Shown: one piece after another, positions 1,604 through 29,552 of the stretch
Position numbering within the stretch: the first letter of the stretch is position 1
How the letters are laid out: each line of letters begins with the position of its first letter
Source of the DNA: a virus
DNA length: 32,165 nt
Virus record (IMG/VR): IMGVR_UViG_3300020580_000288
Coordinates: 1 to 32,165 of that record
Strand: one strand, 5' to 3'
The notes under the pieces: generated by a model
The model's database searches: none
Seen by the model: the letters and a program-made list of their open reading frames with translations, nothing else
Told to the model about the DNA's origin: nothing
Translations under genes and position numbers: made by a program

Positions 1604-1776
1604 TATTGTGTCTCCTTTTCATTTTGAATTTGAAGCTCTTTCGGCAAACCGGCCTCTAATTCCGCAGGCAATTGTTCCTTAGGGTCGAGGTCCCCCATCC
1701 AATTAAGTCCTACGTAATTTTCACGCGTGACCGGGATGTGGTGTGTCTTTAAATACTCTAATGTATAGTCCTTCAT
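1603..1776 (-). CDS. small phage protein, 57 aa (YLKTHHIPVTRENY type)
   Basis: A short gene with the start MKDYTLEYLKTHHIPVTREN, then a Trp/Gly turn (LNWMGDL) and an acidic C-terminal part. The ATG (1774-1776) overlaps the TGA of the giant upstream gene in an ATGA junction, and its TAA overlaps the next ATG, so it is coupled on both sides. From memory, small phage proteins with a pattern like xIPLTRENYLxLAYxGxPPxE are common near late genes; this one has the same layout (ITR/VTRENY, then hydrophobic-Gly, then an acidic Pro/Glu-Leu tail). No function is known to me for that group. Confidence 0.75.
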   Translation of the reverse strand: MKDYTLEYLKTHHIPVTRENYVGLNWMGDLDPKEQLPAELEAGLPKELQIQNEKETQ

Positions 1777-4700
1777 TTCTTACCTGCCAATCGAAACAAG
1801 CCGCCTTGACCCATAGCCTCCAAAAAGTCTTGAGCACTCATCTTGCCCAATCCCTTGGCCTTTTGGTTTGCCGCCATAGCCTCTGCAGCTTTACCAGCAT
1901 ATTGTCTCACAAGCTCGTGGGCTTTGTCAAGTGTTATTTTTCTATCCCCATACTGACGCCAAATATCGTCAATAGCCTTGGCGTGGGTACCAGGCATATC
2001 GCCCTTAGCCCCAATCCACTTCATTTCGGCTGGGAACATGCTCCGAATCTGCTCCCAGACGATTGATTGCAGCTGACGGGGTTGTACTCCCAAATCCCTA
2101 GCTGCGGCTCTGTACGCGTCTGCATACAGCGGGTAGGTGCCATTTACACCATTGAGTATCGAACCTGGGGCTCCAGCGGCCCCGAAATTGTGGAGAACTT
2201 CGGTAGACTTGCCAGAAAGCATGCGCTGAAGGGCAGCTGCCACGGCATGAGTGTCAATGGTGACGTGACCGGCTGGATTGTTCGGGTCTAAGATGTTGTT
2301 ATAGAAATTGCGCACCTTATGAGCATCGCCTAGGTTATTGCTAATGTTCTCGCGGCTGCCGTCTTCCAAAATGGATACGGCCTTGCCGATTTCGTTCAAA
2401 CCGCCCCAAGCAACCTTTTGTGGCTCGCCCGCGCCCGTCTTAACGATGCCTCGACCTTCACCAGTAGCTGGGTCAATCGATTGAAACTCGCGAGGATTAT
2501 GGGCTTCATCAAATAGGCGAATCCAAGCAGCCTTCTCAGGCAGCTCGGTTAAGTCCGATAGACGCTTACCTTCGATCTTTGGACCCATCTCCGCGAATAC
2601 CTTACCAGATGGGCGGTTGCCAATTTCGGCAGCCTTCGACATCATCTCTGGCGTAGCCACAGCGTCTTGCTGCTGATGGTAGATGTCATTAACGCGATTG
2701 GCCAAGCTAACGTTTTGGTCCCAATCCTTTTGAGGACTCATCGCCGCTACGACGCCAGCTAGCTGTTTTGTCGACTTCCCAAATTTGTCGGCTAGCTTCG
2801 AGACCATAGTATTCGCTGAATCATACCATTTAGCATTCGCTTCGCGTTGTTCCTTAGGAACGGCGTTATACAAAGCCTTCAAGTTCTCTTTCGTATGATC
2901 TTCAAATCGGTCTAAAACCTTTTGCGGGTCTTTGATATTTTCAGGAATTCGCATGCCTGGGTATTCGCGCACCAAATCGGCCATCTTCTTATCCATACCA
3001 GGAACGGCGGCTAGTGCCTCACGGCCAATCTTTAAGTCAGACGTTAATGGATTCTCCACAGCCTTAGCGCTAGATGGTACGCGGGTGGAGATAAGACCTT
3101 TTTGCTGGTCCTCGGTGCCCTCGACGTTCTTGCCGAAAGCAAAATCCTCGGGTTCAGCTTTGATGTTGGTCTTCAAATCATTCAATCGATCTTCTATCGG
3201 ATACTCTGGAAACGCAGTCTTCTTTCCTTCTCCGCCGACCGGGACAGTTTTGCCTTCTTGATTATCCCACAAAGTACGCTGGTCAAGTTTCCCAGCCATC
3301 GTCTTCGCAGTATTCAAATCGTTGGTCGACGCACCGATGTTTAGCTCAGGCTTCTCGCCTGTAGTATCCCAGCCTAGCTTAATGTCTGGGTGCAAGCCTA
3401 GCTTATCGCCATGCTCTTTAGCGTAGTCTTGAAAGTCTTGCGCGGTCGGATTGGCTTCTAATGGCTTGCGAGCCTCGGGTAGAATCTCGAAGCCGTAACG
3501 CTTGGAAGGAGCCTCAGGATTTAATGGGTTGATACCGCCAGCGGGCTGCTTTTTTAAGTCGATGTTCTGAGCCCAATCTTCGGGTTCTTCCTGGATTGGA
3601 GACAAATCCATCTTACTTTCAGCAGGAACATTTGCAATATCGGAGTACCCAGACCAAATCTTAGCGGGAATTGTTTGCTTACCCTCTTGATGAGCTTGCA
3701 CAATTCGGTGCATACCATCTTCAACTAAGTACTGCCCATTATCAGGATTATAGACGATACTTACAGGACCTTCGGTTTTACTACCGGCTTTTCTAAAATA
3801 ATTTGACGCAGCTTGATTATACTGGCGCTCTCCAACTGCTATCTTTGAAAGGGGGATTTCTGTCTCAACAGCTTCATCCTTAGGAATTCCTTTTTCTATT
3901 CCTTTTGGTGGAGTCCATTCTGCAGTAGAAACATTTGTCTTCAGTACTCCTGCAGCTTGGTCGGGGTGAGCGCCGATTTCACGCAGCATTGAATCAACGT
4001 CGCGAGGGCTGGCAAATTCTTTAGCGGCTGACTTACCACCTGACTCCCCAACCTCTATCAAAAGGTTGCCGTCTCGACCAAGACCTCTGCCAACAGCCTG
4101 TCTCAAGGCCGATACCTGGTCTTCGGTTACGCCTTTTGCGGGAACGGACGCGACTAATTCCTTACCAGCAACAGATTGACGAAAACGCGTTCTAATTGCG
4201 CCGGTGTCACGCAAGAATCCAATTCGATTATCTACAGGTTCCATTTTTCCAGTTTCAGGATTATGAATTTCTGTATTCTCCGAACGCGTCATCTTAGCGC
4301 CGACTGCCTCCGCATCGCCGCCGCGATTGGTTGCAGATTCAATAGCAATAGGATGTTCTATGGAACCTAGATGAATAAACTTTCCATCAGGAGTAATAAA
4401 TGATGCGCCATTCTTAACACCCGTCGGGTCCGTAGACACACCAAATTTTTCAGCTACTTTTTGAAGGTCGGAATGATACTCTTCTTTCTCAGCCTTTATG
4501 TTCGTCTTCAACCCTTCTTCTAGTTCATTCGGCTTGTGAAACTCTTCAGGCAGCAACCCAGCCTTGTTCTTAGCGTACGGTCTCTCGGCTGGAGGAACAA
4601 ATCCTTGCTCGCCCTTCGCAGGAATCTTACCCTCTGCGTTCCTCAAGTGCTCGCCGAAATTAACCCACGAATTCTGGCCGCGAGTCTCTGTAGTAAGTGC

Positions 4701-7700
4701 AGGAACGGCTTCAGGCGAGAACATTTGACGGTGAACGTTCCAAGCATTCTCTTCGCCCTTTGGACCAAACTGAAAGTCGTGGGCTGCGTGTCCGAATAAA
4801 TCATGGACGGCTCGCAGCTTGTCGTTATAGCTCAATCCAGTTTTAGAATCAATGGCAGCCAACGGATGGTCCGCAGGAATCTCTCCGCCTTGGAAGAAAT
4901 ACAAGTGCTTGTTGTTCTTCACGTCCGCAGTCATCTCTTTCGAGTTAGCGTACGGTTGGCCTTCTTTAGTCCAAGGCTCAAACTTAATGCCCATCTTATC
5001 TTGAGCATAGTTCCACTGATCGTCGATATCCTTCTTAGCTGCACCGTAGGCCTTTTGTACAGCGGAGTCGGTAGGGTTGTGTGGCATAGCCTCAAATGCT
5101 TGTGCAATTCGGTTGGCTACCTCAGGACTGTGGGGGATTGGCTTCGCGTCGACTGCAGGCTTACCAGCCAATCGATTGAATTCATCCGCGTGCTCAGCGA
5201 TTGTCTCGGGCTCTTTTTCCGCACGAGCTTCGGTCTTCAACCCACCGTGGATAGCTTCATCATACCCAGGCTCGCCTTTCTTAGGAATTCTCGATTCCTC
5301 CGGGCGAGCTTTTAGATATTCTGCCCTACTTTTTCGCAACTGCTCCCGAACGTTTTCTGCCGAAATCTTATCCGTAGGCAGGGCTAAAGTCGAGCCAGTT
5401 GTCGGGTCATGGAAATAGGCTAAATCCTTCAACCCTAGTTCCACATCACCTTTCTGAATGCCGCCAGGGATGCCGCCGCCTTCTTTAATTGCAGCGTCGT
5501 GCTCACCTGTGGTACGTTCGGGCGGAACCGTACGGCCTGCCTTGTAAGGGACACGAGCCTCTACTGCAGTCGGCTTTTCCCTGTTCTGTCTCATCCACTC
5601 ATTTTGCAAAACGTTTTCGAAGCCTAGGTCTTTTATCTTTTTCTCAATCTCGGGATGTGCTTTAAGTTCGGGAATAATTTCCGTAATCGCAGGAGCTTCC
5701 TTGTCCTTGATCTCGGTCTTTAATCCTCTGCTTCCTCCGGTTTCGCTTCCAGCACCAGCTCCCGCTTCATTGGAAGGTCGTGCTCCTTCCGCATTTTTAT
5801 TCGGAACTTTGCCTTGTCCTCCGGTGACGTCTTTTCCGCCACCCTTTCCAGTTCCTGTAATAGTCGACTCTTTGTTACTAGGGCCATTTCCGCCACCTCT
5901 CGCTTGTCTAACTTCTTGTACCGCTTGACCAATGGTTTCTGGGTGCAAGTGTAATCCCTCGTCCAAGCCAGCTTGACGCTGACTTGTGTATCGTTGGATT
6001 ATATCCTTAACTCCAGGGGTTGTCAAGACCTCTCTTGCCTTTAGTTCCGCAGCCTTGGTCATCATGCCAATTTCTGCAGGACCGAAACCAAATTTCTTCA
6101 AAATAGACTTTATACGACTTATATCGCCTGACGCGCCTGGATTCTTTTCAACAGGTACACCGTGAACAATTTCTTCCGCGATTGGACCGCCATAGAATAT
6201 GGCAAGAATATCAGGCAATCCCGCCATCAACTTAGCGTCGTCCCACTTTCCATTCTCATCTTGGAATGCAGACTTATCCCAACGAGCTTCGGCGGCAGCA
6301 CCTTCATCTATCTTTGGGTGCAAATGGCTGATAACGTCTCCGGTCCCGTGACCGAACTCGTCAACCATAATCTGGTGACCTAATTCATGAGCACGCAATC
6401 TCGGACCCGTGTAGCCTTTGCCTACGTAGTTTGCGGGCAGCTCTAACTCGTCTTCCGTATCGAATGGAATTGCTGCATTCGTATTCAATCCAGCCGCTTC
6501 TTTTTCTTCCTTTTCTTTCGCCGCTTCCTTAGCGGCAGTTTCAGCTTCCTGGGCAGCTTTCTCTGATGCCTTCTGCTGGTCCAATGCTTGCTTCTGAGCT
6601 TCTTTTTGAGCCTTAGCCGCGTCTACTTTTTGCTGTTTTTCCAAGTTAGCGCGTTGCTCGGCTTTGGTAGAATTCACCTTATCGAGCAAACGCATTTGTT
6701 CTGGTGTTGGAGGCTGGCCCTTATCTGCGGCAGCTTGAATATCACCAGCGAAACGGTTTTCTAACTCGTCAAAAGGAACCGAACCAACCAACTTCCCATA
6801 ATGCGAAGATAGTGCAGCATACAATTTGTGATTTACCGATGGTCCTCCGCTTACCGATGACTGCCCACCAAACATAGTTGGTGCAGACATACCAGGTGCA
6901 CCAGCTGGTGCAGTTGGCGTTGGGGGTACCGGAGCTGGGCCAGCAGGAGGTGCTGGTGGCGTAGGAGGAGGCGTGCCAAATTCTGGCGCAGTTACCGAAG
7001 CCTTAGGATTCTTAGCCGCGATATCAGCTGCGCGATTGACATTAATAGTAGGGTTGCCTACGTTTTGACGAATCTGATCGCCTAATATAGCGGCTCCGAC
7101 AGCGGCTCCGCTAATTGGGTGACCTAATGCAATTGCAATAACCGTCGACGGAACGCCAATCTTCTTCATCAAGGAGCTAAAGACGGTACCGTTGCCCATG
7201 TCTTCGGCTTTCTTTTGAGCGCCGTAAAGGCTATCACGAATATCGATTAAGTTAGCTTCCTTCTGACGCCATTCCTTAACGCCTTTAACGTTCTTAGCAT
7301 CATAGTGCTCGTCGATTGCTCCGCGCAATTCATCGGCAGCTATTCTTGCTCCAGCCTTATAAGCATCTGTGGTAGGACGAGCGTTGGTGTTATATTGAGG
7401 AGCCGCGTCAATATTCAAACCTTGACGCGTGTTCTCGGCCTCGAATAGATTAGGCGCACGCTTTGCGTACGTTGGTTTACCGTTGGGGCCTATGCCCGTT
7501 TGATCGCCGCGTTGCAAGATACGATTAATGACGTCTTCCTTGGCTGCTTCTACATCCTCTGGAGAACCGTACTTGCCTGCATTGTCGGCAAAGAAGGTAT
7601 CCATGCTCTTACGAATACGTTGCTCCAAATCTGGCACAACTGATTCTTTCGAACCTTGGGTCGCCTTAGCTTTCGCTTGCAGTTGGGTTTCATTTTCTTG

Positions 7701-9080
7701 AATGTGACGGTTGATTGCATCCCCTAATGTCTTAGGGTCTTCGATATTCGGATTCTTGTTCAAAATACCTTGCAAATCTTCGCTTACATTTTCAATCTTA
7801 TCTTTGTGTGCTTGATAAGTCTTCGGAGTGACTTTGCTTGCACGTAGGATGGCTGTATTGAAATCATTGGTTCTACCAATAAGCGGTCCAAGCGTATCAG
7901 CCGTTGCACCTGCAATGGCCTTCGCGCCTTCTACCGTAGCCTTGGCGACCTCTGGGATATTTTGAACGGCCTCGACGCTCTTTTGCGCAGCGTATCTAGT
8001 GGTCTCTTTAACCGCGTCCCCGACCGCTTTACCGACTGGGTCCGGATGACCCGTGCCCGCGTGGTAAGCGGCGGCGTACGCCATATAAGCGCTAGCCGCA
8101 GCCTCGGCGGCTTGTTCCTTGGCTTGCCAAAGAATCTGCTCTGCCTTCGGTTGGTCGCCAGCTTGCACGGCAGCATCGTAATCTTTCTTAGCTTGAACCA
8201 ATCCTGGAATTTGCTGTGCCGTTCCAACAGCCATTTGACCAGCAAAATATGCCGATACAAGTCTTGGGGTTGCGGCAACAACTTTTCCAAGCATGCCTAA
8301 TTGAGGCGCGACTTGAGCGGCTTCTCCAAGGAAACCTAATCCTTGAGTGCCCGCTAATATCATCAAGTTTTCTTCGCTGGTTAAACTGCCCGCCATGCGA
8401 GCTAAGCCATACAAGATAGGATAATCTTCTTTTACGCCAGCCGACGACACAAACAGCTTCTCAGGAGATAGTAGACGCGTTCCGCCCTCGGCATATTCCT
8501 TAGCGTTTCTAGCCTCGAACTGTGCGTCTGCTCTAGAGCGGTCGATGTGTTGCTTTTCAATGGCTACTTGATCGGGTTCCGTCGAAGCATTGCGAGCCTT
8601 TAATCTAGCAACGGCTTCTTCATTCGTTGCCGCTGGTGGTACCGTCTTATCTGTAAATTTTTGTGCGATATCATACGGCAGCCAACCAGGCCCTTCATTA
8701 TCTAATACCGCATTCTTGACTCTACGCGCAGCTTCAGTCAACGGTGCAACGATATTTTGATGGAACCAACCCTCTTCAGGTTGAACTGGAGCGTTGGGGT
8801 CAAACTTCGGCTTGGTATCTGTTTGGTCCAATGCTTGAATAGGAGCATTTGGGTCGAACTTCACCTTTGGCTGAGCATTGTCCAAAGCTTGAATTGGAGC
8901 GGTTGGGTCGAATTTTGGTCTAGATGCTGGTGGCGCAGTTTCCATATCTGAAACAGGACCTAGCTTCTTACCTGATATATCATAAGCTATGCCGTCTTCG
9001 ATTTTTGTCGCAGTTGGGTACTGGGAGGGAGTTTGGATGTCCGTTTGGGGACCTGATTGAACCTGCTCTGGGTCAGCCAT
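1773..9080 (-). CDS. giant polyvalent virion protein (gp16-like position) with M41-like metallopeptidase and several effector-like modules, 2435 aa
   Basis: One uninterrupted 2435-residue reading frame in the place of T7 gp16, the largest ejected internal protein. In order: three FDPNAPIQALD-type repeats (about 45-100); hydrophobic segments (about 220-290 and 660-690); a Pro-rich hinge (about 700-735); a Lys/Gln/Ala coiled coil (about 805-870); a metallopeptidase-like domain with HELGH at 898-902, GGPIAEE to 970 and GASGD ending at D986, the arrangement of FtsH (M41) peptidases; a DPTTGSTLALP module (about 1200-1240); an HDLFGHA module (H1426, with TTETRGQNSW near 1464); a FITPDGKFIHLG module (about 1545-1700); a ParB-like VEDGMHRI module (D1788); and a C-terminal domain with AAMSPQKDW (S2115) and TIDTHAVAAAL (D2276). 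Five LKTxxxAE linkers lie between modules. Its length and mosaic fit the 'polyvalent proteins' described by Iyer and co-workers. Ejection with the genome is inference from position. Confidence 0.8.
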   Translation of the reverse strand: MADPEQVQSGPQTDIQTPSQYPTATKIEDGIAYDISGKKLGPVSDMETAPPASRPKFDPTAPIQALDNAQPKVKFDPNAPIQALDQTDTKPKFDPNAPVQPEEGWFHQNIVAPLTEAARRVKNAVLDNEGPGWLPYDIAQKFTDKTVPPAATNEEAVARLKARNASTEPDQVAIEKQHIDRSRADAQFEARNAKEYAEGGTRLLSPEKLFVSSAGVKEDYPILYGLARMAGSLTSEENLMILAGTQGLGFLGEAAQVAPQLGMLGKVVAATPRLVSAYFAGQMAVGTAQQIPGLVQAKKDYDAAVQAGDQPKAEQILWQAKEQAAEAAASAYMAYAAAYHAGTGHPDPVGKAVGDAVKETTRYAAQKSVEAVQNIPEVAKATVEGAKAIAGATADTLGPLIGRTNDFNTAILRASKVTPKTYQAHKDKIENVSEDLQGILNKNPNIEDPKTLGDAINRHIQENETQLQAKAKATQGSKESVVPDLEQRIRKSMDTFFADNAGKYGSPEDVEAAKEDVINRILQRGDQTGIGPNGKPTYAKRAPNLFEAENTRQGLNIDAAPQYNTNARPTTDAYKAGARIAADELRGAIDEHYDAKNVKGVKEWRQKEANLIDIRDSLYGAQKKAEDMGNGTVFSSLMKKIGVPSTVIAIALGHPISGAAVGAAILGDQIRQNVGNPTINVNRAADIAAKNPKASVTAPEFGTPPPTPPAPPAGPAPVPPTPTAPAGAPGMSAPTMFGGQSSVSGGPSVNHKLYAALSSHYGKLVGSVPFDELENRFAGDIQAAADKGQPPTPEQMRLLDKVNSTKAEQRANLEKQQKVDAAKAQKEAQKQALDQQKASEKAAQEAETAAKEAAKEKEEKEAAGLNTNAAIPFDTEDELELPANYVGKGYTGPRLRAHELGHQIMVDEFGHGTGDVISHLHPKIDEGAAAEARWDKSAFQDENGKWDDAKLMAGLPDILAIFYGGPIAEEIVHGVPVEKNPGASGDISRIKSILKKFGFGPAEIGMMTKAAELKAREVLTTPGVKDIIQRYTSQRQAGLDEGLHLHPETIGQAVQEVRQARGGGNGPSNKESTITGTGKGGGKDVTGGQGKVPNKNAEGARPSNEAGAGAGSETGGSRGLKTEIKDKEAPAITEIIPELKAHPEIEKKIKDLGFENVLQNEWMRQNREKPTAVEARVPYKAGRTVPPERTTGEHDAAIKEGGGIPGGIQKGDVELGLKDLAYFHDPTTGSTLALPTDKISAENVREQLRKSRAEYLKARPEESRIPKKGEPGYDEAIHGGLKTEARAEKEPETIAEHADEFNRLAGKPAVDAKPIPHSPEVANRIAQAFEAMPHNPTDSAVQKAYGAAKKDIDDQWNYAQDKMGIKFEPWTKEGQPYANSKEMTADVKNNKHLYFFQGGEIPADHPLAAIDSKTGLSYNDKLRAVHDLFGHAAHDFQFGPKGEENAWNVHRQMFSPEAVPALTTETRGQNSWVNFGEHLRNAEGKIPAKGEQGFVPPAERPYAKNKAGLLPEEFHKPNELEEGLKTNIKAEKEEYHSDLQKVAEKFGVSTDPTGVKNGASFITPDGKFIHLGSIEHPIAIESATNRGGDAEAVGAKMTRSENTEIHNPETGKMEPVDNRIGFLRDTGAIRTRFRQSVAGKELVASVPAKGVTEDQVSALRQAVGRGLGRDGNLLIEVGESGGKSAAKEFASPRDVDSMLREIGAHPDQAAGVLKTNVSTAEWTPPKGIEKGIPKDEAVETEIPLSKIAVGERQYNQAASNYFRKAGSKTEGPVSIVYNPDNGQYLVEDGMHRIVQAHQEGKQTIPAKIWSGYSDIANVPAESKMDLSPIQEEPEDWAQNIDLKKQPAGGINPLNPEAPSKRYGFEILPEARKPLEANPTAQDFQDYAKEHGDKLGLHPDIKLGWDTTGEKPELNIGASTNDLNTAKTMAGKLDQRTLWDNQEGKTVPVGGEGKKTAFPEYPIEDRLNDLKTNIKAEPEDFAFGKNVEGTEDQQKGLISTRVPSSAKAVENPLTSDLKIGREALAAVPGMDKKMADLVREYPGMRIPENIKDPQKVLDRFEDHTKENLKALYNAVPKEQREANAKWYDSANTMVSKLADKFGKSTKQLAGVVAAMSPQKDWDQNVSLANRVNDIYHQQQDAVATPEMMSKAAEIGNRPSGKVFAEMGPKIEGKRLSDLTELPEKAAWIRLFDEAHNPREFQSIDPATGEGRGIVKTGAGEPQKVAWGGLNEIGKAVSILEDGSRENISNNLGDAHKVRNFYNNILDPNNPAGHVTIDTHAVAAALQRMLSGKSTEVLHNFGAAGAPGSILNGVNGTYPLYADAYRAAARDLGVQPRQLQSIVWEQIRSMFPAEMKWIGAKGDMPGTHAKAIDDIWRQYGDRKITLDKAHELVRQYAGKAAEAMAANQKAKGLGKMSAQDFLEAMGQGGLFRLAGKK

Positions 9081-26908: not shown

Positions 26909-27569
26909 CATTCTCGGCTAACTCTGCTTCCGTGTACTTCTTCAAATTGCGGAGTTCCCACAAACTGCGTTGGTAACGACGGAAGGTTTTGTTGCCTGAA
27001 GGTAGTCCAAAAATCTTGTGAGCTTGGTACTCGGTTAGAATCTCTTTCTTAATGAGTTCCATTAATACCGTGCGCCAACCTCTAAACTTTTCCCCGACTG
27101 GGATGTTGTGGCGGTCCAATCGTAAAACGGACCATTCATACATCGCTGGGATTTGCAAATAACAAACATAGCGGGCTCGGGCAACCTGCTTGGGGGGAAT
27201 ACACCACAGCCCAATCGTGCCCTTCAAGCCGTTATAAACTGTGAAACACTTGATACCGTTAGCTCGGAGTTTCGCGACAAACGCGTCCGTGGACATCGGA
27301 TTGACTTTACGGGCTAGCTCGTTGGTAAGGTCTTCTTGGTCTTCTATGTGATACTGTTCACCCATTTCATCCGAGATTTCTTTCTCGGCGGCGAAGCTTT
27401 CCTTAACGAAAGCGCGATAATCTTCTGGCCATCGGACCCAATTCGGTGTGCCGCCTGCTAGAATCTGTTGGATACTGGCTTTGGTTGTGGGCAGGTCGTG
27501 GTGACCTAGGAATGGGTCGTCTACTTCTTTCAGGTGGTCTGCGGTTCTGATGCGATTGTCGACTGACAT
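26901..27569 (-). CDS. unrecognised phage protein, 222 aa
   Basis: Not recognised. A soluble, mixed-charge protein with NWVRWPEDYRAFVKESFAAE near residues 43-62, an acidic helix, a strand pair (IKCFTVYNGLKGTIGLWCIP), then aromatic and basic segments (YVCYLQIPAMYEWSVLRLDR) and a basic C-terminus. The ATG at 27569 is preferred over one five codons upstream because AAGGA sits 5 nt before it and would be inside the gene for the earlier start. Its 5' end is overlapped for 40 nt by the 3' end of the homing endonuclease gene. It and the 217-residue gene are likely to travel together in head or neck assembly, by position only. Confidence 0.65.
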   Translation of the reverse strand: MSVDNRIRTADHLKEVDDPFLGHHDLPTTKASIQQILAGGTPNWVRWPEDYRAFVKESFAAEKEISDEMGEQYHIEDQEDLTNELARKVNPMSTDAFVAKLRANGIKCFTVYNGLKGTIGLWCIPPKQVARARYVCYLQIPAMYEWSVLRLDRHNIPVGEKFRGWRTVLMELIKKEILTEYQAHKIFGLPSGNKTFRRYQRSLWELRNLKKYTEAELAENDV

Positions 27570-28198
27570 TGGATTCCTTGACATAGGTCACAGTCTAATT
27601 TTATTATACCACGAGCAACATGATATCGCTTATGACCAGATATATGTCCTGCTATTGCTGCTTCTTCAGATGTTCTAATCGGTGGTCGAAGACCAAGACG
27701 CTTAGTAACTTCTCGATGTTTATCTTTTGTTTCTTGAGAAACCACTCTTGCTTGCGCGGCTTCAGACATCTTGCGTCTGGTTTCATCCGAAAAGACACGA
27801 CCTTTATATCTCTCTGACATAGCCTTAAGATATTCTGGTGTTCGGATAGCGCCGACCGCACACTTATTTCCAAGAAGTTTTTGCGCTCGTCTTTTACGAG
27901 TTTCTAAAGAAAGACCGACTACGCCTTCACCGCCATCAGTTAAGTTATAACCATTTGGTGCTTTAGTATTATATCGGCTGATATACTCAGTTTCAAACTC
28001 CCCCGCCAATTCTTTAGTAGGGACATCAAAAAGAACTTCCATACTGAAGTTATTTGCACCATATTTATCTATGGCGTTGCGAAGGGCTCGACAACCTTTG
28101 CGAGTCTGATGTATATGCCAGCGCCATTCTAAAGAACGAGATGTCTGACCTATATACCTTTTTCCGTTGACTAAATTTGTGATTAAATAAACTATCAT
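27530..28198 (-). CDS. GIY-YIG homing endonuclease (free-standing)
   Basis: A 222-residue nuclease. The GIY-YIG core is at residues 3-90: VYLITNLVNGKRYIGQT (Y4, Y15 of YIG), an arginine at R26, the metal-binding glutamate in EFETEYI (about E71) and GYNLTDGG (N85). Residues about 95-165 carry NUMOD3-like DNA-binding repeats (SLETRKRRAQKLLG; SDETRRKMSEAAQARV). The end has a GHKRYHVARGIIKLDCDLC motif seen in related phage endonucleases. Such enzymes nick or cut a defined site and drive copying of the element by repair. The gene lies 112 nt past the capsid 3' exon, not within the intron, and overlaps the next gene by 40 nt. GAGGAG lies 5 nt before ATG. It has its own promoter and leader hairpin. 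Confidence 0.9.
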   Translation of the reverse strand: MIVYLITNLVNGKRYIGQTSRSLEWRWHIHQTRKGCRALRNAIDKYGANNFSMEVLFDVPTKELAGEFETEYISRYNTKAPNGYNLTDGGEGVVGLSLETRKRRAQKLLGNKCAVGAIRTPEYLKAMSERYKGRVFSDETRRKMSEAAQARVVSQETKDKHREVTKRLGLRPPIRTSEEAAIAGHISGHKRYHVARGIIKLDCDLCQGIQCQSTIASEPQTT

Positions 28199-28310: not shown

Positions 28311-28400
28311 TTACTGAATAGCAGGTACACTATCAATAAATCTCACGCGCTGCGTATTTAGGCCAGTGGCCGGTGGAAGCGTTACGGTTTGCAATCGCTT
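28311..28400 (-). CDS. major capsid protein, exon 2 (C-terminal 29 codons)
   Basis: An in-frame 29-codon stretch, KRLQTVT then LPPATGLNTQRVRFIDSVP and AIQ-stop (TAA 28311-28313). It has no usable start, follows directly on the intron's 3' end, and looks like the missing end of the capsid protein. The first base is 28400 if the intron ends at GTAGG; an equally in-frame alternative is 28397 (intron ending GGAAG). Splicing restores a capsid protein of 346 (or 345) residues. Confidence 0.75.
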   Translation of the reverse strand, partial: KRLQTVTLPPATGLNTQRVRFIDSVPAIQ

Positions 28401-28601
28401 CCTACTTTTTGTTACTCGCTTTCGCGGAGCCAATCATTTCTGTTGGCTTCATACAGTTCGTTTCCTGTATGTTCAGACTATTGCATCACCTTTCGGTGTT
28501 CTCTCACTTAGTCGTTCAGGCTGCTTTCGCTTGCCCCTCGTTGGCTTCTCAGCGTTCGAGTCAATACAGAGAGAATTTTAATTCCACCATTCCGAATTTC
28601 A
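28401..28601 (-). ncRNA. group I self-splicing intron, ~201 nt, ORF-less
   Basis: Read on the minus strand. P1: the exon end GATTCCAT (28602-28609) pairs over 8 bp with GTGGAATT (28580-28587), placing a U-G wobble exactly at the 5' splice site. P3: TTCTCTC (28569-28575) with GAGAGAA (28499-28505), 7 bp. P7: GACTA (28509-28513) with TAGTC (28476-28480), in the classic contexts AACGACTA and ATAGTCTGAAC. P8: CACC-GAAA-GGTG (28487-28498). P9-type hairpins: CATACAG/CTGTATG (28450-28471), AGCCAA/TTGGCT (28428-28448) and CGC-GAAA-GCG (28417-28426). The 3' end is a G as required. At about 201 nt it is near the size of the 205-nt Azoarcus tRNA intron. P4-P6 were not fully resolved by eye. It begins with TGA, in frame, so unspliced RNA gives a truncated capsid protein. 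Confidence 0.88.
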
Positions 28602-29552
28602 ATGGAATCTGTAACTTGCCCATCCCCCAATTGTTGCGGTCGGGTCGAACGAAGACGGCGGCGCGTCAGTTACAACGCGGCAGTCAATGGTTCTCCAATC
28701 GCCTTCATCAAGGTCGGTGTCGCCAGGAACCTGTAGCCACACACCAATCATCGCATAATTGCCGAAGACATATGTGCGGTACGCGGTCTTCGTGGTCCCG
28801 CTGTAGTTAGCAGTCTTGGTCACGAACGGGGTTTGACGGAAGAGGATGTTCGTGCCAGGAAGCACGATTTCTTTCGTCTGGTCGCTGCCAGCCATCTCAT
28901 CAAACTTCCGTTGCCCACTCTCGGTGTGCTTCCAGTTGTCGATGATGGAGTTGTTCACCGTGGTCGCGTTGTAAATATCACCCAACACGTTCGGTGAAAC
29001 TACGCCGTAGAACATACCCTTTTTGCAAGGGAGAACGTCGGCGCTAACTAGCTGCTGCTTCATTTCACGAACCGTGGCTAGGTCTAGCGTGAACGGAGTT
29101 GCAAGCAAGCCGCTCTGGTTTACGTTTGCGTCAACGCCAGAAGCGCTGTCGGCAACCGCGCTGTACAACTCGCTGATGGACTGCCCAGCTTGATAGCCAA
29201 GTTCCACAGCGGAATTGCCAACGAGTTCGTCAATCGAGGATGCGATTGCGAACGCACTGAAGTTCGCGTAGTTGTTCCATTCACCAACCTGAGCTGGTGC
29301 GGAAATCTGCGAGATAACTTCAGGTGCTCCGACTACTCCGTCGGCGTTTTGTACAACGTCACCCGCTAGGGTGTTGTACTGGAAGAACTGGCGGTTTACG
29401 CCCATGTGCAATCCCTGCACACGACGCTCTGCTACTGTTACGAAAGCGTCTGTTTCTCCCTTAAGGTTGGGGATTAACTCCTTATCGAACAAGATAGCTT
29501 GTGCGGTAAGGACGTTTGATACGTTTGACCCCGAAGGGTTCGGTCCACTCAT
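28602..29552 (-). CDS. major capsid protein, exon 1 (N4-gp56-like, HK97 fold)
   Basis: 317 residues before the intron. The pattern NVLTAQAILFDKELIPNLKG, then QFFQYNTLAG, EWNNYANFSAFAIASSIDEL, FYGVVSPNVLGDIYN and DPTATIGGWASYRF is that of the N4-gp56-type capsid family. These proteins build the icosahedral shell around the scaffold. Most relatives continue for some tens of residues past the IGGWASY motif, but this frame meets TGA right after RFH; the intron and exon 2 explain that. The start ATG has only a weak SD (AGAG), odd for such an abundant protein. Scaffold lies just upstream, as expected. Confidence 0.88.

What the first reader, a model, noticed from the sequence alone, without database searches (positions are those of the whole stretch)
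28311..29552. Major capsid gene interrupted near its 3' end by a compact group I intron
Seen: exon 1 ends ...IGGWASYRFH and then TGA. The next 201 nt fold into an 8-bp P1 with a U-G pair at the splice site, a 7-bp P3, a classic P7 (GACTA/TAGTC), a GAAA-capped P8 and three P9-type hairpins. A 29-codon frame follows that reads like a capsid C-terminus and has no start of its own. Known: group I introns show exactly this P1 wobble, P7 contexts and terminal G. At about 201 nt the intron is close to the smallest natural ones. An annotator using ORFs alone would end the capsid protein 29 residues early.
Basis: partly seen in the sequence, partly recalled or inferred. Interest (0 to 1): 0.92.

Follow-up and report, generated by a model that had tools for sequence, protein, structure and literature searches.

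The report
Self-splicing intron in phage capsid gene
The main shell-protein gene of this soil phage is split by a tiny self-removing RNA (a group I intron), one of a large undescribed family that sits mostly in phage shell genes and in which many members appear to add a "destroy me" tag to the faulty protein made when the RNA is not removed.

Summary
The finding is real, with corrected borders. The capsid gene (minus strand, 29552 to 28311) is interrupted by a 210-nt group I intron at 28601..28392. Exon 2 starts at 28391 and encodes 26 residues, not 29. Uninterrupted homologues, one 95% identical, read straight through the junction (...RFH|QTVTLPP...). Across 32 related introns 99.7% of core pair cells are standard pairs, P7 pseudoknot included. 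Rfam missed it, but Rfam's threshold also misses the proven T4 td and nrdB introns.

It belongs to an undescribed intron family. About half of the related capsid genes carry introns, at about 15 sites, up to three per gene. Two scans based on intron sequence alone found about 76% and 72% of members in major capsid genes of at least eight PHROG families. One of 50,697 annotated phage records holds a recognisable copy; there the coat gene is annotated as two genes.

Most surprising: reading exon 1 in frame into the intron ends in an ssrA-like Leu-(Ala/Val/Thr)-Ala-stop in 47 of 166 junctions, but 0 of 332 in the other frames, using all Leu and Ala codons. This suggests an intron-encoded degradation tag on unspliced product. 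The window's own intron lacks it (immediate UGA). Splicing and degradation are inferred, not shown.

The parts
28602..29552 (-). exon 1 of the major capsid gene, 317 codons, ends ...GGWASYRFH
   Evidence: 39.6% identical to the annotated major head protein of Tunturiibacter phage Tunturi_3, E 4e-43
28392..28601 (-). group I intron, 210 nt, last exon base U, last intron base G
   Evidence: spliced protein matches intronless homologues without gap; R1 model 110 bits, but the window is in the model
28311..28391 (-). exon 2: QTVTLPPATGLNTQRVRFIDSVPAIQ and stop
   Evidence: 26 codons collinear with intronless homologues
28602..28609 (-). P1 5' strand in exon 1 (GATTCCAT), last U pairs with G
28580..28587 (-). 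internal guide sequence (GTGGAATT), 3' strand of P1
28569..28575 (-). P3 5' strand TTCTCTC
   Evidence: all 7 pairs compensated across the family
28499..28505 (-). P3 3' strand GAGAGAA
28518..28560 (-). P4-P5-P6 domain
28509..28513 (-). P7 5' strand GACTA; bulged C and one more A-U pair upstream
28476..28480 (-). P7 3' strand TAGTC
28487..28498 (-). P8, GAAA-capped
28417..28471 (-). three P9-type hairpins
   Evidence: first two covary; the third seen in the fold only
27530..28198 (-). free-standing GIY-YIG homing-endonuclease gene (222 aa), 112 nt after the capsid stop
   Evidence: PF01541 E 3.5e-11, phrog_314 E 5e-38; same place in 14 relatives

Best explanation
The capsid pre-mRNA contains a compact group I ribozyme. 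An internal guide sequence pairs with the end of exon 1 (P1, U-G at the 5' splice site), a guanosine bound in P7 attacks there, the freed exon attacks after the terminal G, and the exons join into one mRNA for a 343-residue capsid protein. Ribosomes that enter before splicing stop at the in-frame UGA at the first intron codon. The intron has no ORF of its own and belongs to a family that has entered major capsid genes of several phage groups at many sites. Some relatives carry HNH-like or LAGLIDADG-like nuclease genes for DNA homing; here a neighbouring GIY-YIG nuclease may help in trans. Shown by comparison: borders, fold, family, capsid bias. Inferred: splicing activity, mobility route.
For: Intronless homologues, one 95% identical, and even distant Tunturi_3 are collinear across the junction. 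The same U|...G rule rebuilds the protein at most of the other sites. 28 core pairs: 99.7% of 896 cells paired, 21 pairs with two-sided changes, 0 of 500 shuffles as good; slid versions reach 37-45% paired. The P7 pair next to the bulge covaries A-U/G-C in 154 of 155 scored introns. RF00028 gives sub-threshold hits on relatives, E 1.9e-6 and 1.7e-5.
Against: No RNA data: neither splicing nor guanosine dependence is shown. Rfam's model does not hit the window even at E 10. P10 and the exact 3' splice site are not proven. The R1 model was trained on these introns, so its scores on them are not independent. A structure prediction of the capsid protein failed (pLDDT 31), so the role of the last 26 residues in the fold is not tested.
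Confidence: 0.95

Rival explanations
1. Same intron, but the 3' splice site is after 28401 so that exon 2 begins at 28400 and the protein gains KRL.
For: In frame and also after a G; gives a 201-nt intron.
Against: None of the intronless homologues has residues between FH and QTV. In L073, an intron of the same site type, only the zero-insertion site is in frame after a G (sequence listed).
Confidence: 0.04
2. The ribosome, not the RNA, skips the insert (translational bypassing as in T4 gene 60).
For: The insert is short and exon 1 is followed at once by a stop.
Against: A complete covarying group I core has no role in bypassing; relatives up to about 1 kb carry nuclease ORFs.
Confidence: 0.01
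3. Dead insertion: the 317-residue protein is the working capsid protein.
For: Not excluded by sequence alone.
Against: Exon 2 keeps its reading frame and most residues of the conserved C-terminus; core helices are intact. A second record of this type, L001, with a 98% identical capsid protein, has the same layout.
Confidence: 0.02
4. For the capsid bias: capsid genes are not preferred targets; the scans only see close kin of capsid introns, or introns elsewhere are lost faster.
Against: Whole-record search of 27 further phages of this type (about 1.9 Mb) finds every R1-type intron at the capsid gene; at least eight capsid PHROG families are hit, and the intron tree mixes capsid families, with at least 9 label changes forced for the window's type.
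Confidence: 0.25

Closest known systems
Phage group I introns of T4 (td, nrdB, nrdD; subgroup IA)
   Same: P1 with U-G, P3-P7 pseudoknot, P4-P6, terminal G, in-frame early stop, homing nucleases of GIY-YIG or HNH type
   Different: T4 introns carry long loops and sit in nucleotide-metabolism genes; the 3-nt junction between P7 and P3 here leaves no room for the P7.1 stem of IA; T4 td and nrdB read-through ends in VFLG and VSFA, not LAA
Small group I introns of Jug gut phages (PMC12363816)
   Same: About 206 nt on average, many per genome, splicing of many supported by metatranscriptome reads
   Different: Reported in terL, nrdD and DNA polymerase genes; no capsid preference or degron reported in the passages read
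Cyanophage psbA intron with free-standing nuclease (collaborative homing, reviewed in PMC3984707)
   Same: ORF-less intron next to a free-standing homing nuclease
   Different: Here the nuclease cut site is unknown; the link to C-terminal introns is not significant (Fisher p 0.06)
ssrA (tmRNA) tag, ClpXP degron
   Same: C-terminal ALAA/LAA on incomplete proteins marks them for destruction (PMC7652416, PMC8512704)
   Different: Here the tail would be encoded by the intron and added by ordinary translation of unspliced mRNA; absent from the window's own intron

Membership tests
Group I intron | P3-P7 pseudoknotted core with P4-P6 and P8 | tested here: met
   all core helices covary, P7 included
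Group I intron | Guanosine-binding site in P7 with a bulged base | tested here: met
   pair beside the bulge covaries A-U/G-C in 154 of 155; binding itself not tested
Group I intron | U-G pair at 5' splice site, terminal G | tested here: met
Group I intron | Precise removal restores the host gene | tested here: met
   sequence level only
Group I intron | Self-splicing with exogenous guanosine | not testable with these tools
   needs in vitro splicing
Rfam RF00028 Intron_gpI | Score above curated cut-off | tested here: inconclusive
   no hit; proven T4 td and nrdB also missed; relatives hit below cut-off
Subgroup IA (typical phage type) | Extra stem P7.1 between P7 and P3 | tested here: not met
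   junction is 3 nt
Mobile (homing) group I intron | Encodes its own homing nuclease | tested here: not met
   no ORF in the 210 nt; some relatives have HNH-like or LAGLIDADG-like ORFs (by motif)
Collaborative homing pair | Neighbouring nuclease cuts the intron's empty site | not testable with these tools
   GIY-YIG gene 112 nt downstream; statistical link not significant
Intron-encoded ssrA-like degron | In-frame read-through ends in L-A/V/T-A-stop | tested here: not met
   window intron: immediate UGA; relatives 47 of 166

The most novel reading that the evidence does not exclude
This family of group I introns carries a fail-safe: in many members the exon 1 frame continues into the intron and ends in an ssrA-like Leu-Ala-Ala-stop degron, so that truncated protein made from unspliced message is destroyed by ClpXP-type proteases before it can poison capsid assembly. 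The family is specialised on major capsid genes and jumps between unrelated ones, perhaps by reverse splicing into the most abundant late mRNA. The window's intron is a tag-less member, with an immediate stop instead.
Probability: 0.65. Interest if true: 0.93.

Novelty: new variant of a known kind. Interest (0 to 1): 0.86.

Why it matters
Phage group I introns are described as preferring nucleotide-synthesis and DNA-metabolism genes, for reasons called mysterious (PMC12350094). A family that prefers major capsid genes of different capsid families makes 'why these genes' testable: target RNA abundance against nuclease targeting. If the LAA tails work, introns encode their own protein quality control, a function I found no report of. 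Practically, annotation by ORFs alone truncates or splits the capsid gene, a marker gene for phages, in about half of the related genomes seen here, and Rfam's default threshold gives no warning.

Tried and rejected
Rfam at gathering and at E up to 10 on the window: nothing; on nine intron-rich loci: nothing at E 1; T4 control also missed. Reading exon 2 in the third frame (...NASTGHWPKYAAREIY*), which looks capsid-like by eye: rejected, homologues show QTVTLPP. AlphaFold on a capsid alignment of 20 sequences: pLDDT 31, useless, no fold search done. Host from bacterial genomes: only two contigs in a metagenome-assembled archaeal bin, not trusted; host is guessed as Acidobacteriota from Tunturi_3 only. 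Nuclease linked to C-terminal introns: p 0.06, not claimed. Alanine ends of the AKAA type were excluded from the degron count because they come from the conserved P6 RNA sequence AAGCGAAAGCAGCGTGA. L079 looked like a +1-frame case until its frame was corrected.

Full report
1. Observation. On the minus strand the capsid ORF runs from 29552 to an in-frame TGA at 28601-28599 after ...IGGWASYRFH. The next 210 nt fold well beyond shuffles (z -3.8 and -4.2). Capsid identity rests on 39.6% identity (E 4e-43) to the annotated major head protein of Tunturiibacter phage Tunturi_3; a Tunturi_3-like relative, L126, hits phrog_1357, major head protein.

2. Borders. A scan of viral contigs returned 80 relatives. 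Some 35 are uninterrupted and read GGWxSY(K/R)FH-QTVTLPPATG...SVPAIQ*; L002, 95% identical at the protein level, is one of them. The window has QTVTLPPATGLNTQRVRFIDSVPAIQ* from 28391. The junction that gives this protein also ends exon 1 in U and the intron in G: intron 28601..28392, 210 nt. Spliced product: 343 residues.

3. The family. In the same gene, relatives carry introns at about 15 positions (codons about 21, 26, 28, 30, 94, 271, 272, 287, 291, 303, 306, 308, 311, 314-316, 325, and probably 338 from core positions only). 35 of 70 genes with usable sequence have at least one; L069, L070, L073 and L075 have three cores each. ORF-less ones are 165-240 nt; larger insertions (about 630-1050 nt) contain HNH-like or LAGLIDADG-like ORFs, named here by motif only.

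4. Structure. RNAalifold on 32 cores finds P3, P4, P5, P6, P8, P9 and P9.1, with 33 of 38 pairs compensated on both sides. With P7 written as a pseudoknot, 99.7% of 896 cells pair, 21 of 28 pairs have two-sided changes, and no shuffle of 500 comes near; slid versions reach only 37-45%. Beside the P7 bulge, A-U and G-C alternate in 154 of 155 scored introns, the arrangement of a guanosine site. The junction P7-P3 is 3 nt, so there is no P7.1.

5. Rfam. No hit in the window. Two relatives score 26.7 and 24.2 bits with RF00028 (E 1.9e-6, 1.7e-5), below its cut-off of 50. The T4 td and nrdB introns also fail the cut-off. A negative Rfam result is therefore not evidence against.

6. Which genes? 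A pattern from the intron core alone gave 103 further loci (confirmed with model R1); the interrupted gene was named by PHROGs, Pfam and tblastn: 78 major capsid, 13 probable capsid (families without a firm profile hit), 4 tape measure, 2 ribonucleotide reductase, 1 portal, 1 unknown, 4 unassigned. A second, looser pattern gave 60 new viral loci plus the annotated record L294: 44 capsid, 2 probable, 3 reductase, 2 portal, 10 unassigned. Capsid families include P22 coat (PF11651, E 6.5e-29), an N4-like group (phrog_1357, weak; 'N4-like' is my reading of the sequence), phrog_9953, 283, 267, 2522, 247 and 14242. In 27 whole records of the window's type, besides the window, all R1-type introns lie at the capsid gene; one hit in G002 lies at the opposite contig end and is taken to be the circular junction. 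In 50,697 annotated phage records one similar intron was found: MW202674.1, where the P22 coat protein is annotated as two CDS around it.

7. Spread. The intron tree (108 columns, poorly resolved) mixes capsid families; the smallest well-supported set holding the window contains three of them, and at least nine label changes are forced for the window's type. Homing needs matching exons, so jumps between unrelated genes suggest reverse splicing or another ectopic route (inference). A GIY-YIG gene sits 97-134 nt after the last sense codon of the capsid gene in 14 of 15 loci that carry it there, the window included (328 nt in the other, measured from an incomplete gene end); its link with C-terminal introns is not significant.

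8. Possible degron. Reading exon 1 in frame into the intron, the peptide ends in L-(A/V/T)-A-stop in 47 of 166 distinct junctions, and in 0 of 166 in each other frame; background 0.2% of stop-terminated stretches. For stops upstream of the conserved core: 33 of 123 against 0 of 280. All six Leu codons, all four Ala codons and all three stops are used, so the protein ending, not an RNA motif, seems to be kept. It occurs in introns of several capsid families, a tape measure and a reductase gene. In the window's family it is absent at N-terminal sites (0 of 16) and common at C-terminal ones (16 of 27; Fisher p 5.6e-5), as expected if only long truncated products are harmful. The label changes at least seven times on the tree. 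Against: sequences are related; some P22-like coat proteins naturally end in RIAA or RVAA; no degradation data; the window's intron has an immediate UGA and no tag. Early stops in group I introns are otherwise explained as helping RNA folding (PMC3984707). A literature search found no report of intron-encoded degrons, within open-access papers only.

9. Verdict. The window intron is structurally a plain group I intron, but a member of an extraordinary family. Confidence 0.95 for the intron and its borders, about 0.75 that capsid preference is biological, about 0.65 that the tails act as degrons.

Noticed in passing
L027, L007, L028, L060, L075, L113, L116, L256, L270 and others: In-frame read-through from exon 1 into the intron ends in ssrA-like LAA, LVA or LTA before the stop in 47 of 166 junctions, never in the other frames.
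   Followed up: yes
L085-L204, L227-L293: Introns of this family sit mostly in major capsid genes of at least eight PHROG families; few in tape measure, portal or ribonucleotide reductase genes.
   Followed up: yes
L294:2191-3706 (MW202674.1): P22 coat protein annotated as two CDS with an unrecognised intron of this family between them.
   Followed up: partly
L032:3090-3254, L078:1355-1522, L075:3090-3261: Very small relatives of 165, 168 and 172 nt that lack the outer P9 hairpins.
   Followed up: partly
L061:1955-3001, L070:2046-3001, L080:829-1875: Two intron cores in tandem near codons 21-30, with an HNH-like ORF in the stretch.
   Followed up: partly
L295 (phage T4 136000-146500): Rfam 15 at gathering threshold misses the td and nrdB introns.
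   Followed up: yes
window 27530-28198: Free-standing GIY-YIG nuclease gene with a NUMOD3 motif just downstream of the capsid gene; same position in many relatives.
   Followed up: partly
G004:69921-70281 (minus): Sub-threshold RF00028 hit (18.2 bits, E 0.001) far from the capsid gene in an intronless-capsid relative; perhaps another intron type.
   Followed up: no
L225, L226: Relatives of this phage capsid lie in contigs binned as 'uncultured archaeon LFW-28', probably a binning error.
   Followed up: no
window 1773-9080: Single ORF of 2435 codons on the minus strand, apparently a giant multi-domain virion protein.
   Followed up: no
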